The translations under genes were made by a program, and so were the position numbers. A stretch of DNA of 64,000 nt from Planococcus antarcticus DSM 14505 (GTDB lineage: Bacteria > Bacillota > Bacilli > Bacillales_A > Planococcaceae): contig NZ_CP016534.2 of assembly GCF_001687565.2 (NCBI RefSeq), forward strand, positions 1,864,501 through 1,928,500. The letters run 5' to 3'. Position 1 is the first letter of the stretch, and each line of letters opens with the position of its first letter. The notes beneath the pieces are model-generated. The model was not told where the DNA came from and did not search any database. It saw nothing but the letters and a program-made list of their open reading frames with translations. Positions 59,775-64,000 of the stretch are shown here, one piece after another.

Positions 59775-60386
59775 TTAGTTTATCGACAAATATTCATGAT
59801 CTTTCAGTCTTACTACTGTTTCATTTTTGTCTAATTCAAATCTTTTTATCCGTTGTTCTATCGTTCTTCCTATCCCATCCGGAAATAAATCTTCCCGATC
59901 ATAATGGGGAAACAGCAGCTTTTCCGTGAGGCCTAAAGCATTAAAATCGGCCAGTTTCAACGTATTCAATTCCGGTTTGAAAAAACCTGCAACTTCTATA
60001 GACCCCCCAAGAACCATTGCACCAGCACTGGCGCCGACAAATACTGTTTTCTGTTGAGCGAGTTCGTTCATGATTTCGGAGCCGCCGCTTTTCTTTAGCC
60101 AATAAAGCAGTTGAAAGGGATTTCCTCCATTGAGAAAAACGGCATCATAACTACCAAGAGCTTTTGGACTTTCGTATTCGAAATCAAAAAAGGTAACATG
60201 GACAACTCCCATTTCAATCAAATCCTGTTTTGCTTTGACCGCAGATTTGCTTGCTTCTTTCTCTGGAGATGCGGTTGTAATGATTACTGCTTTAATCGCT
60301 GATGCAGGTTTGGGCAAAAGCATTAAAAACTTTTGTTTTATTTGTTCAGTCCCAAATCCGTTAGAAGTCAGCAAGATTCTGCACAT
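59775..60386 (-). CDS. Type 1 glutamine amidotransferase-like / peptidase E family protein
   Basis: A 203-residue protein of the S51/peptidase-E group. The nucleophile elbow is GASAGAMVLG with Ser; FLNGGNPFQLLYWL precedes it, and FPHYDRED carries a conserved His. Members are dipeptidases or act in cyanophycin breakdown. ATG at 60386 is 8 bases after AGAGGAGA; the open frame to 60428 has no other site. Single gene. Confidence 0.87.
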   Translation of the reverse strand: MCRILLTSNGFGTEQIKQKFLMLLPKPASAIKAVIITTASPEKEASKSAVKAKQDLIEMGVVHVTFFDFEYESPKALGSYDAVFLNGGNPFQLLYWLKKSGGSEIMNELAQQKTVFVGASAGAMVLGGSIEVAGFFKPELNTLKLADFNALGLTEKLLFPHYDREDLFPDGIGRTIEQRIKRFELDKNETVVRLKDHEYLSIN

Positions 60387-60546
60387 GGATAGTCTCCTCT
60401 TTTCTACTATATTGTTTCGCAAAGCCATGCCAGGCTAAACATATCTTCTGCATGCCTGCTTTAGAACTGGAACAAAAGACAAAACATGAAAAATGCCTCC
60501 GCACTTTTTTAGAACGCTTCGGAATATTGCTTTTTCAATTTGTCTT

Positions 60547-61444
60547 TTAGGCTTTCCAGCATGTATAGATTATACACCCGTTCCTCTCACTCAATAATTG
60601 ACGATATCCTGCCAGCGGCTCATCAGATTTGATTTTCTCGTAATGGGTAACGAGGTCTTCTTCAACATGATCGAATTCACTTTCCTACAGCGAAACCTTA
60701 GGATCGATGAACAGGTAAACTTCAGCAAGAAGCAATAAATCTTCAATGAGAAATTCTTCCGTGCCTTCCGCAATTTTCTTGTTCAGCAAATCTTCCGCTT
60801 ATCCGAATTTCCCTTAAGCCAATTGAGCATCCACCAGTATCCATTCGGCGGCGTCTCCATCGTAAATGTCTCCTGCTTTTTTATAGCCACTTTTGTTTTT
60901 TGGCTGCTGCATAGTTTTTCTTATCCAACTGCTCATAAGCTTGGTTAAACCAGTCATGCAGCTGATCTTATTGCACAATCATTTGTTCAAGGAAAGTTGC
61001 CTTGTATTCCTCAATTCCTATGCAAATCGAATATTCCGTTTTTTTACAGTATATGTTTGTTGATCTGGACATCAATAAGTCCGGGATTATGTCCTGTCCA
61101 TGTGCCTCCACCAGAGATTCTACAGTCAAAAAGCTTTGCGCATAAGAATCATATACATCTGTAGCAGAAGTGTCAAAGTCCTGCTGGCTGTCGAGGTCAT
61201 GGAAATCGATTAGTCTAATGTCTCCCAAGTTATACCACCCACTGGATTCACTGGTAAAGTAATCGGCAATGCCTTCTTCAAACCAGGAAGGCATTCGTGT
61301 GATCAACAAGCTGTGCTGATTGGAGAAAATATGACTTTGATAACGGGAATTTTCATGCACCAAGATCATCTTCCAATTTCCATCTGTCGGAACCAAATGG
61401 AACATCCCAAAAATCATCGGCCCGATAATAAACCCTCGATTCAA
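60547..61444 (-). pseudogene. Gluzincin (peptidase MA-like) metalloprotease with TPR-like tail, heavily decayed
   Basis: The N-terminal part (61444 to 60968) reads WKMILVHENSRYQSH and PSWFEEGIADYFTS, the two motifs of peptidase MA-like gluzincins (HExxH and EGIADY), but the second His of HExxH is Arg. After a TAA at 60968 the same frame continues DQLHDWFNQAYEQLDKKNYAAAKK, then a frameshift near 60900 leads to AGDIYDGDAAEWILVDAQLA, interrupted by TAA, TAA and TAG. All four stops fit Gln codons changed by C to T. The tail resembles tetratricopeptide repeats. No start codon with a ribosome site was found, so the 5' end is also lost. Confidence 0.7.
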
Positions 61445-61752
61445 TATGAGGAACTATATCAGATATGAGTGTACAGCAAGTAAGAAAAATTATTTAACTG
61501 GACCTTTCATTTAAAACTCCGATAAGTTTGGTAGGGAAAGAAAAACAGACATTATCAAGCGGTTTATTAATTCAATAAATAGTCTTTTAACAGTAATCAG
61601 CTTATTTTCCAACGAACTTTAACGCTTGTGCTGGATGACAGACATTCTTCAATATTGATGCAAAAAAAGGACTGCCCTAAAGTCCTGTTTCATGACTTTT
61701 AAAGGCAATCCTTTTTAATTTCATTTATCGTTGTTTCGTAAACTCACTTTAA
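61445..61752. other. 300-base gap with terminator for the surface protein
   Basis: AT-rich. Its main feature is the hairpin at 61661-61719, given separately. Confidence 0.5.
61661..61719 (-). terminator. Terminator of the surface protein gene
   Basis: On the minus strand AAAAAGGATTGCC pairs with GGGCAGTCCTTTTTTT; the loop is long (about 25 bases). Confidence 0.65.
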
Positions 61753-63114
61753 TTACTGTTTACGTGTACGAACCGCAACAACAGTCGTAAGCGCTGCAAG
61801 CATCAAACCAGCCAATACCCACATGAATGGGAATGATCCGGTGTCTGCTGTTCCACCCATGCCTGTTTTCGGCATTTCAGATGGCATTTCCGTTGCGCCA
61901 AATTCTTCTGGGAATTGGTCTACGATCGCGGCGGATAAGCCCGCTGCCGGCATTTGCATGTGGGCATACGCTTCACGAATCGAACTATACGCGGTTTCGT
62001 AATCGCCTGCAACATATGAGTCAAATGCCGTCAGTAGCTGTTCCACATGTGCCGTTAAGCCTTCTTCTAAGGCATCAGCCGGAACGCGTCCTTCTGTCGC
62101 TGAATCCAAGAAGGCCGCCTGGTCTAGGATGTACTGATCCAGTTCCGCACGTGCTTGTTCTTGCCCTTCTGCATTTTCTTCACCGGTCGCCACTACGTAA
62201 TCGACAAAGTAGCCAATGTGCGACTTCCAGGTTTCTTCAAATTGGGCACCGGCTTCTTCGCCGTAGACCGAACCAACAGCGGCCGACAAGTCATCGGCAT
62301 TGGCCAGCAACGCGGCGGATGCTTGGTCAAAACTTTCAGCGCCATCGGCACCGTCTTGCATCGCCATTGCGGCAAGTCCTGCATGCTCCGTGAACGTCGT
62401 GTTCAGTGTCGCACGCAAATCAATGGCAGGTGTATCGGGATTGGTATTTTCGAACTTCTCTGGGAACTGTGTCGTGATGGCAATCGACAAGCTTTCTGCA
62501 AACATGCTCATGTGTTGAATCGATTCCCGTTCAAGCGAGTACGCTTGTTCAAAATCACCCGCAACATAGGCATCAAACGCCATAATTAATTGATCCACGT
62601 GCACGTCCAAACCTTCTTGAACCGCTGCGGCTGGCAATAGTCCGTCCGTGGCCGTATCAAAGAACTTCGACTGTTCCACTTTGTATTCTTCCAATTCGGC
62701 TAGAGCTTGGTCTTTGCCTTCTTGGTTGTCTTCAGCGGTCGCTGTGACATAATCCACGAAATACCCAATGTGTGATTTCCATATTTCGTCAAACTGTGCA
62801 GCGCCTTCGTCGCCGTAAACGGAACCGACGGCAGCTGACAGGTCATCGGCGTTGGCCAATAATGCACCCGACGCTTGGTCAAAATCTTCCGCGCCATCGA
62901 CGCCTTTTCTCATCGCTTCGACTGCCAAGAAGGCATGTTCGGTTAAGGTCGTATCGAGTGCGATGCGCAGTTCTGCAGCAGGTGTCATCGTGCTTGCTTC
63001 CATAGCAGATTCGCTTGTTGGCGTTGAGTGGCCGTGGCTGTCTGCCAGTGCCGCCGTTGGTACGAGTAGAGATAGGCTGAGTGGTAAGGCTAAAAGAACT
63101 TTGTTTAATTTCAT
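61753..63114 (-). CDS. Wall-anchored protein with two His-containing helical repeats
   Basis: A 453-residue exported protein. Residues 1-25 are a signal peptide. Two helical repeats (about 45-228 and 229-412) align with a constant offset of 184 residues. Each has four histidines: H60/H244 (TEHA), H115/H299 (KSHIGYFVDYV), H172/H356 (HV-x-QL) and H201/H385 (HM). The C-terminus has MPKTG (414-418, an LPXTG variant), a hydrophobic span and RTRKQ, suggesting sortase anchoring. The His pattern suggests metal or heme binding. A His-rich stretch (DSHGHS) follows the signal. It lies downstream of an anti-sigma factor and after its own promoter-like element. Confidence 0.8.
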   Translation of the reverse strand: MKLNKVLLALPLSLSLLVPTAALADSHGHSTPTSESAMEASTMTPAAELRIALDTTLTEHAFLAVEAMRKGVDGAEDFDQASGALLANADDLSAAVGSVYGDEGAAQFDEIWKSHIGYFVDYVTATAEDNQEGKDQALAELEEYKVEQSKFFDTATDGLLPAAAVQEGLDVHVDQLIMAFDAYVAGDFEQAYSLERESIQHMSMFAESLSIAITTQFPEKFENTNPDTPAIDLRATLNTTFTEHAGLAAMAMQDGADGAESFDQASAALLANADDLSAAVGSVYGEEAGAQFEETWKSHIGYFVDYVVATGEENAEGQEQARAELDQYILDQAAFLDSATEGRVPADALEEGLTAHVEQLLTAFDSYVAGDYETAYSSIREAYAHMQMPAAGLSAAIVDQFPEEFGATEMPSEMPKTGMGGTADTGSFPFMWVLAGLMLAALTTVVAVRTRKQ

Positions 63115-63153
63115 TTCAATCTCTCCTTTTTTTTAGATTCTATAGACATAACG

Positions 63154-63165
63154 GAGAGCGCTCTC
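63154..63165. promoter_or_regulatory. 12-bp palindrome in the surface-protein promoter region
   Basis: GAGAGCGCTCTC, a perfect palindrome, lies 40-50 bases upstream of the surface-protein start. On the coding strand it sits between TGATCTAAA and CCGTTA, a spacing seen in promoters recognised by ECF sigma factors (-35 and -10). It also resembles a cre site with two mismatches. Confidence 0.45.
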
Positions 63166-63186
63166 ATTTAGATCACAATAATTTTT

Positions 63187-63224
63187 TAAAAAAAAAAAAA
63201 ACTGACCGCAACAGCGGCCAGTTA
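63187..63224 (-). terminator. Terminator of the anti-sigma factor gene
   Basis: On the minus strand AACTGGCCGC pairs with GCGGTCAGTT (one G-T pair) and is followed by more than ten T. Sigma/anti-sigma transcripts should end here, so the surface protein needs its own promoter. Confidence 0.85.
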
Positions 63225-63944
63225 AATCTCAGAACTCAATACAATTTCTCCTTCAGGCGTTTCATTCCCTGTCTCGGGCTCCAGCGTAATGGCGATCGTA
63301 TCCCATTCCTCTGTATTTTCTTCCAGCTGATAATAGCTTGCCCCTTCACCGTTCGGATTGGGCGAAAATGCGCCTGCTGGTATCGGTTGGCCGTCCTTGA
63401 TCAGCCATACCTGATAAACTTGGCTGGCATCTAGTTCGGCCAATTGATCAGCTTGTACGACCAGATTCAACAAACCTTCCTCTTCTATCAGCGCTGCAGT
63501 AGCAGTTCCTGAAAATGTTTCGTTCGGCTGCAGTTCGAATGATTTAATGGCCGTTTCCAGTGCATCGTCTTGATCTGACAATTGCTGGAAAGCGTAGCCA
63601 TTGCCCAAGAGCGACACCAGGAGCACAGCCGCAATAAGCGGTTTCCAGATATTCGCCTTACTTTTCTTTTTGTGCAACGGTATCGGTGACATTGTTGGTT
63701 TTAATGCTGCGGGCGGATTGTTCTGTTCCGGTATTTCTTCAAAGACATTGGACAGGATCCGTACTTTCATATCTGCTGGCGGTTCCACTGGATCTGCAAG
63801 ATAAGGGAGCTCGCCAGTCACTTCTATCATTTCCTGACATTCTGTGCATGTTTTCAAATGTTGTTCAAATTGCTGGATTTCATCTGCCGACAGCGTTCCA
63901 TTCAGATAATCTACTAAACGGTCACAATCCATATTAGTCATCAT
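63222..63944 (-). CDS. Anti-sigma factor with zinc-finger and RskA-like domain
   Basis: A 240-residue membrane protein. The N-terminal zinc-binding anti-sigma motif is H29-x3-C33-x2-C36 (QHLKTCTEC), typical of ZAS proteins that hold an ECF sigma factor. A transmembrane helix lies at about 100-118. The extracellular part (120-240) has the RskA-type fold: LNLVVQADQLAELDASQVYQVWLIKDGQPIPAG. AAGGGGGG precedes the ATG, and the start overlaps the end of the sigma gene, showing translational coupling. An external signal should release the sigma factor. Confidence 0.93.
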   Translation of the reverse strand: MMTNMDCDRLVDYLNGTLSADEIQQFEQHLKTCTECQEMIEVTGELPYLADPVEPPADMKVRILSNVFEEIPEQNNPPAALKPTMSPIPLHKKKSKANIWKPLIAAVLLVSLLGNGYAFQQLSDQDDALETAIKSFELQPNETFSGTATAALIEEEGLLNLVVQADQLAELDASQVYQVWLIKDGQPIPAGAFSPNPNGEGASYYQLEENTEEWDTIAITLEPETGNETPEGEIVLSSEI

Positions 63945-64000
63945 AAGCCCCCCTTTCCTGCATCCCGTGCAGCGATGTTTTTAATTTCTTTAAAGCCAGC
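63934..64000 (-). CDS. RNA polymerase ECF sigma factor, C-terminal end (continues outside window)
   Basis: Only the last 22 residues are present, LALKKLKTSLHGMQERGAYDD, which fits the end of region 4 of an ECF sigma factor (after the recognition helix). It overlaps the anti-sigma start by 11 bases. Family assignment is by context and this short tail. Confidence 0.7.
   Translation of the reverse strand, partial: LALKKLKTSLHGMQERGAYDD

What the first reader, a model, noticed from the sequence alone, without database searches (positions are those of the whole stretch)
61753..64000. Sigma/anti-sigma operon driving a wall-anchored protein with a duplicated four-histidine helical module
The surface protein has two repeats offset by exactly 184 residues, and each repeat places histidines at the same four positions (60/244, 115/299, 172/356, 201/385). 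Non-His positions vary between the copies, so the His set appears selected. The motif pattern suggests a helical bundle binding a metal or heme. The protein has an LPXTG-like MPKTG signal and sits next to an anti-sigma factor that could sense the outside. A redox- or metal-responsive envelope system is an inference; I know no named function for this module.
Basis: partly seen in the sequence, partly recalled or inferred. Interest (0 to 1): 0.75.

Follow-up and report, generated by a model that had tools for sequence, protein, structure and literature searches.

The report
Wall protein with four-histidine bundles
An unnamed cell-wall protein of Bacillus-like bacteria carries two helical bundles, each with four strongly conserved histidines that probably hold a metal such as copper, and it seems to be switched on through its own sigma-factor promoter.

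Summary
The 453-aa protein (61753-63114, minus strand) has two modules at offset 184 with His at the same four positions. At 64% module identity that alone proves little, but across 445 homologous modules three of these His are the top columns (tied with Asn88) and the fourth is 96.6% conserved; all four persist in single-module relatives at 22-25% identity. No Pfam family covers the module. It is predicted all-helical (pLDDT 96.5), and coevolution places the His near one level of a helical core. Model coordinates could not be inspected.

'Operon' is only partly right: a terminator-like hairpin separates the anti-sigma gene from the protein gene, which has its own ECF-type promoter (GTGATCY-N16-CGTTA). 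The motif precedes 72 of 93 family genes, 25 of 40 linked sigma genes and 0 of 943 other ORFs; in this genome its promoter-position hits are the four family genes, not the sigma gene. Recurrent neighbours are sortases and, in two lineages, CopC (with CopD and YtkA in Exiguobacterium).

Most likely a wall-displayed transition-metal (probably copper) binding protein under a dedicated ECF system. Metal binding and metal identity are inferred; heme is less likely.

The parts
61753..63114 (-). W: 453-aa two-module surface protein with MPKTG-type sorting signal
   Evidence: 445 proteins matched at E<=0.001 among 8000 scored candidates, best 120 listed
62449..62979 (-). module 1 (residues 46-222)
   Evidence: profile match; fold pLDDT 96.5, pTM 0.89
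61897..62427 (-). module 2 (residues 230-406)
   Evidence: 114 of 177 identical to module 1
62935..62937 (-). His60 codon (module 1, helix A)
   Evidence: 439 of 439 non-gap of 445 modules
62770..62772 (-). His115 codon (module 1, helix B2)
   Evidence: 440 of 442 non-gap
62599..62601 (-). His172 codon (module 1, helix D)
   Evidence: 439 of 441 non-gap
62512..62514 (-). His201 codon (module 1, helix E)
   Evidence: 426 of 441 non-gap
62383..62385 (-). His244 codon (module 2)
   Evidence: aligned with His60
62218..62220 (-). His299 codon (module 2)
   Evidence: aligned with His115
62047..62049 (-). His356 codon (module 2)
   Evidence: aligned with His172
61960..61962 (-). His385 codon (module 2)
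   Evidence: aligned with His201
61756..61875 (-). sorting signal: MPKTG (414-418), hydrophobic helix 430-452, basic tail
   Evidence: sequence; M414, P415, G418 invariant and T417 nearly so in 67 rows; helix; NCBIfam sorting-signal models match only below cut-off
63149..63176 (-). ECF-type promoter of W, GTGATCT-N16-CGTTA
63200..63223 (-). terminator-like hairpin between the anti-sigma gene and W
   Evidence: 10 pairs, T run; number of such sites in the region not above shuffles
61668..61686 (-). terminator-like hairpin after W
   Evidence: same caveat
63222..63944 (-). anti-sigma factor, RskA_C + zf-HC2
   Evidence: both above curated cut-off; NF052375 anti-sigma factor above cut-off
63934..64000 (-). 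3' end of the ECF sigma gene (L006:3435-4001, continues to about window 64500)

Best explanation
W is a surface protein, attached to the wall by a sortase, made of two copies of an unnamed module of about six helices. Four of the helices (A, B2, D, E) bring one His each to about the same level of the core, making a tetra-His site for a transition-metal ion, most likely copper. An ECF sigma factor, held by its RskA-type anti-sigma factor, switches W on through a dedicated GTGATCY-N16-CGTTA promoter together with the other family genes elsewhere in the genome. On the wall the protein binds metal outside the membrane and buffers it or hands it to uptake proteins such as CopC and CopD. Shown computationally: the family, the His conservation, the helical fold, the promoter distribution, and the sortase and CopC neighbourhoods. 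Inferred: metal binding, copper as the metal, actual anchoring, that the neighbouring sigma factor reads this promoter, the hand-over, and whatever the anti-sigma factor senses.
For: His conservation over 445 modules and in relatives 22-25% identical. Confident helical models. Coevolution registers of the helix pairs A-E, A-B2 and B2-D match the His pairs within one residue. Promoter motif before 72 of 93 family genes, 25 of 40 sigma genes, 0 of 943 other ORFs; spacer exactly 16 in 66 of 69 family sites and 29 of 29 sigma sites. In the own genome the only four promoter-position hits precede the four family genes. Sortase near the gene in 45 of 80 loci. CopC near it in 9 of 80 loci, CopD in 7, YtkA-like in 5, and CopC within about 0.8 kb in 10 of 53 CopC-bearing genomes, in two genera (compared by eye). 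CopC, CopD and YtkA are the three domains of the B. subtilis copper importer YcnJ (PMC13344008, passages). Four His at one level of a four-helix bundle bind Cu(II) in a KCa3.1 crystal structure (PMC6023178, passages). The module also sits on SLH and LysM proteins, so it is a surface module.
Against: No coordinates were available, so His-His distances are unmeasured. The D-E register is off by 4 in the sum (rank 11 of 80); the diagonal pairs A-D (rank 16 of 80) and B2-E (rank 46 of 84) give no support; in the W-like subset alone B2-D falls to rank 6 of 74, and in the single-module subset A-B2 falls to rank 19 of 84. The window locus has no copper gene beside W. The CopC-linked Exiguobacterium genes lack the strict promoter. 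The own genome's sigma gene has no motif hit upstream. Genome-wide motif counts do not exceed their controls (3 vs 3; 14 vs 17). A nickel-type ABC transporter lies downstream of W in four Planococcus loci. Paralogues C and B have lost one or two of the His. The copper context rests on about two lineages.
Confidence: 0.5

Rival explanations
1. The site holds another ion (zinc, nickel or iron) for buffering or protection, and the copper neighbours are incidental.
For: A NikA-type ABC transporter follows the sigma, anti-sigma and W genes in four Planococcus loci: directly in L040 and L052, after two genes in L048 and L055; NikA of L052 passes the curated cut-off (the other three loci by clustering only). 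Tetra-His sites suit zinc and nickel too (general knowledge). The window locus has no copper gene next to W.
Against: CopC adjacency occurs in two genera, with CopD and YtkA-like genes in one; the nickel-type context is seen in one genus only.
Confidence: 0.25
2. The His are structural or serve another purpose, and W is a general envelope-stress or adhesion protein that binds no metal.
For: ECF/RskA systems often answer envelope stress (general knowledge). Paralogues C and B keep the fold-defining residues while losing one or two His. No biochemical data were found.
Against: His60, His115 and His172 are at the top of the conservation list with Asn88, at mid-helix positions.
Confidence: 0.15
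3. The module binds heme through two of the His.
For: Helical bundles with paired His can bind heme (general knowledge); wall-anchored heme capture exists in Gram-positives (recalled, Isd/NEAT); a PepSY_TM protein lies near W in 8 of 80 loci.
Against: Four His near one level leave little room for a porphyrin; no heme uptake or biosynthesis gene was among the recurrent neighbour clusters that I examined (reading of clusters, not an exhaustive test).
Confidence: 0.08

Closest known systems
B. subtilis YcnJ/YcnI copper import (CopC-CopD-YtkA domains)
   Same: In Exiguobacterium loci W sits among YtkA-like, CopC and CopD genes, the three domains fused in YcnJ (PMC13344008, passages)
   Different: YcnJ and YcnI have no such helical module in those passages; W is wall-type, ECF-linked and present in many loci without any CopC gene nearby (71 of 80)
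Isd-type wall-anchored heme relay (recalled)
   Same: Sortase-type surface proteins that would capture a metal cofactor outside, with sortase genes beside family genes
   Different: Different fold; no NEAT domain reported by Pfam for W; linked to an ECF sigma factor; no heme evidence
Csp copper storage proteins
   Same: Helical bundle proposed to hold copper in its core (abstract starts of PMC5171941 and PMC10155185)
   Different: Csps use many Cys; W has no Cys and four His per module
KCa3.1 coiled-coil tetra-His Cu(II) site
   Same: One His per helix at one level of a four-helix bundle (PMC6023178, passages)
   Different: That is a homotetramer of a eukaryotic channel; resemblance of principle only
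ECF sigma / RskA anti-sigma systems
   Same: Sigma and anti-sigma domains above cut-off, ECF-like promoter shared by targets and many linked sigma genes
   Different: The apparent targets in this genome are four paralogous surface proteins
Proteins named 'copper amine oxidase' or 'glycosyltransferase'
   Same: Homologues carry these names in public records
   Different: No such domain in W or in 43 module sequences scanned with Pfam; the names look like misannotation

Membership tests
LPXTG-type sortase substrate | LPXTG-like motif, hydrophobic helix and basic tail at the C-terminus | tested here: met
   MPKTG, helix 430-452, RTRKQ end; motif conserved in 67 rows
LPXTG-type sortase substrate | match to a curated sorting-signal model above cut-off | tested here: not met
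   GVDTG_CTERM 24.3 bits vs cut-off 29; LPXTG_anchor 10.5 vs 15.9
LPXTG-type sortase substrate | sortase in the genome | tested here: met
   7 PF04203 matches above cut-off; those next to B and C match the class F model best but below its cut-off, 128.6 and 134.8 vs 166
LPXTG-type sortase substrate | covalent wall attachment | not testable with these tools
   needs cell-wall fractionation
ECF sigma factor | sigma-70 regions 2 and 4 only | tested here: met
   Sigma70_r2 64 bits and Sigma70_r4_2 57.3 bits, both above cut-off, 188 aa
ECF sigma factor | own gene under the same promoter motif (common, not universal) | tested here: inconclusive
   25 of 40 linked sigma genes in other records carry it; the own genome's sigma gene shows no hit
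RskA-type anti-sigma factor | zf-HC2 plus RskA_C domains | tested here: met
   33 and 66.6 bits, above cut-offs 22.2 and 29.4
copper amine oxidase | copper amine oxidase domain | tested here: not met
   no such family among Pfam or NCBIfam matches of W
glycosyltransferase | glycosyltransferase domain in single-module homologues | tested here: not met
   none in L033, L034, L035 or in 43 module sequences
Csp copper storage protein | Cys-lined four-helix bundle | tested here: not met
   no Cys in W
tetra-His metal site in a helical bundle | four His meeting at one point | tested here: inconclusive
   coevolution registers agree for three adjacent pairs, not for the diagonals; no coordinates
tetra-His metal site in a helical bundle | bound metal | not testable with these tools
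   needs purified protein
any solved fold | clear structural match in the PDB | tested here: inconclusive

The most novel reading that the evidence does not exclude
Bacilli carry a wall-anchored copper relay, comparable in layout to the Isd heme system: tetra-His helical modules hung on the surface by MPxTG, SLH or LysM anchors capture Cu(II) outside and pass it to CopC and CopD/YcnJ-type importers, and a dedicated ECF sigma/RskA pair with its own promoter controls little more than this set of surface proteins.
Probability: 0.2. Interest if true: 0.8.

Novelty: new variant of a known kind. Interest (0 to 1): 0.6.

Why it matters
A module with no Pfam family, whose relatives are named copper amine oxidase or glycosyltransferase without domain support, occurs in 59 of 200 sampled genomes of the class (single-module hits included). 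It has a strongly conserved candidate metal site, and the sigma regulon around it can be read from sequence. If it binds copper it would give these Gram-positive bacteria a wall-level stage of copper handling, which none of my nine literature searches turned up. The site, the promoter and the neighbours make it directly testable, and the names in databases could be corrected.

Tried and rejected
Copper amine oxidase and glycosyltransferase functions: names in homologue records, no domain support. Weak Pfam hits (WXG100_2, DUF7832, DUF2150, VirE2 and others) lie below, or in one case at, curated cut-offs and differ from protein to protein; rejected. A PDB sequence hit to a designed protein (9dm3, E 0.00029 over 45 positions) was taken as helical similarity. 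Fold comparison gave no match clear of chance for helical bundles. The Foldseek 'pdb' search never ran. Genome-wide counts of the promoter pattern are not above controls (3 vs 3; 14 vs 17); only position singles out the family genes (the other ten hits lie inside open frames of 197-579 codons; three of them also have a start codon close downstream). The number of terminator-like sites (4) is not above shuffles (mean 2.9, sd 2.0). In the column-shuffled control of the coevolution test the best registers differ from the His registers, though single His ranks as good as 4 of 80 and 8 of 90 occur by chance. In one search the row G000_W was off by one base and is void; the comparison of W with its copy rests. 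Literature: searches returned no paper; some searches returned listings (only the best few of the matches shown), none on this family. Of PMC13344008 and PMC6023178 I saw passages found by term; of the others only listings and starts of abstracts.

Rows dropped: paralogue B's two modules, which lack His115 and His201, were left out of alignment A4 (39 of 41 representatives used, plus two window modules, L034 and L035). For one search, 65 of the 80 genomes with a hit were given; the 15 left out are those with only single-module or partial distant hits. Alignment A2 had 67 rows, mostly the 64 representatives of 136 full-length proteins. The promoter count skipped ORFs without 200 bp upstream (93 of 95 family ORFs, 41 of 43 anti-sigma ORFs counted). 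The protein searches listed only the best 120 of 445, 430 and 814 matches, and only the best 80 of 470 loci.

Full report
What is there. On the minus strand a 453-aa protein (W, 61753-63114) follows an anti-sigma gene (63222-63944) and an ECF sigma gene whose 3' end is at window 63934 and which continues outside. W has a signal-like N-terminus (by eye), two modules at offset 184, and MPKTG, a hydrophobic helix and a basic tail at its end. It has no Cys; its ten His are His27, His29 and the eight in the modules.

Are the His special? Inside W the modules are 114 of 177 identical, so their agreement is weak evidence. The family decides it. Among 445 module sequences, from proteins listed by three searches plus W, B and C, His60 (439 of 439 non-gap), His115 (440 of 442) and His172 (439 of 441) head the conservation list, practically tied with Asn88 (438 of 440); His201 is 426 of 441. 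These rows are related and not independent. In an alignment with three single-module proteins (W modules 22 and 25% identical to the first of them), the four His are among 16 invariant columns. In a set thinned to under 70% identity His60, His115 and His172 are invariant in 43 rows; His201 is lost in some paralogues, and paralogue B, which also lacks His115, had been left out of that set.

Regulation. A terminator-like hairpin separates the anti-sigma gene from W and another follows W. Between the first hairpin and W lies GTGATCT-N16-CGTTA. In 80 loci from named records, TGAWCY-N16-CGTT occurs in the 200 bp upstream of 72 of 93 family genes, 25 of 40 sigma genes, 5 of 48 sortase genes, 0 of 41 anti-sigma genes, 0 of 9 CopC genes and 0 of 943 other ORFs. 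In the wider scan the spacer is exactly 16 at 66 of 69 family sites and 29 of 29 sigma sites. Of the 72 family genes with the motif, 41 have no sigma gene within 3 kb, so it is not merely shared local sequence. In the window's genome the loose pattern hits 14 places (control 17); four of them lie 34 to 56 bp before the start of a family gene (W, W-copy, B, C) and the other ten lie inside longer open frames. The sigma gene of this genome has no hit upstream. That the neighbouring sigma factor reads this promoter is inferred from the shared motif; the other four sigma-like hits in the genome are at most 34% identical to it.

Neighbours. In the 80 loci, which are biased to close relatives, sigma and anti-sigma genes lie near a family gene in 34 each and a sortase in 45; sigma plus anti-sigma directly upstream in 22 and a sortase directly downstream in 34. 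In the own genome W has no sortase next to it, but B and C do; those two match the class F model best, below its cut-off. CopC lies near a family gene in 9 of 80, CopD in 7, PepSY_TM in 8, YtkA-like in 5. In unnamed whole genomes CopC lies within about 0.8 kb of a family gene in 10 of the 53 genomes with CopC, out of 65 searched: six of the window's genus (own genome included; one beside a gene fragment) and four of genus g49 (compared by eye). YcnJ of B. subtilis, a copper importer, joins CopC, CopD and YtkA (PMC13344008, passages), so the Exiguobacterium order places W inside what looks like the split form of that system. Against this, four Planococcus loci have a nickel-type ABC transporter downstream, and the seven CopC-CopD-linked Exiguobacterium genes lack the strict promoter, showing by eye a variant with the same CGTTATC box.

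Paralogues form a series: W and its copy have His at all four places in both modules, C has lost His201, B has lost His115 and His201. The module is also carried by SLH proteins (P0065, and P0121 with four modules by eye) and by a LysM protein (L035): different anchors, same place, the cell surface. Distribution: 59 of 200 sampled genomes of the class and 27 of 40 relatives, own genome included in both.

Reading. The best account is a wall-displayed transition-metal binding protein tied to an ECF sigma system. Copper leads by neighbourhood, with nickel or zinc open. Metal binding, hand-over to CopC and sensing by the anti-sigma factor remain inference.

Noticed in passing
window 61753-63114 and L007:7141-8502: W has a second copy 1.47 Mb away differing at 3 of 1362 bases (1 residue) while the upstream DNA differs; G014 and P. 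stackebrandtii also hold pairs closer to each other (28 and 44 differences) than to other species, but one G002 pair does not (214), which suggests gene conversion in some genomes.
   Followed up: partly
window 63154-63165: A perfect 12-bp palindrome GAGAGCGCTCTC fills much of the spacer of the W promoter and is absent from the copy's promoter; possible operator.
   Followed up: no
L007:6603-6956: A 117-aa ORF resembling the start of the anti-sigma protein lies between the W copy and the CopC gene; Pfam gave no anti-sigma match.
   Followed up: no
window 60968-61444: A 158-aa ORF downstream of W is 69% identical over 143 residues to the middle of a 506-aa protein at the same place in L048, so it is probably a remnant of that gene.
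   Followed up: partly
window 59775-60428: A protein resembling peptidase E (by eye) follows; its relative keeps the same place in L048 and L055, 62-70% identical.
   Followed up: partly
L086, L088, L091, L096, L097, L100, L102, L107, L112: In nine Rossellomorea-type loci a 359-360-aa ORF that looks by its first residues like a nitric oxide synthase oxygenase lies just downstream on the other strand; not scanned.
   Followed up: no
L094, L110, L116: PepSY_TM and YtkA-like genes precede the family gene in Exiguobacterium, and CopC and CopD follow it.
   Followed up: yes
L093, L095: In Metabacillus and Peribacillus a family gene sits between two large genes that look by eye like gyrB and gyrA.
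   Followed up: no
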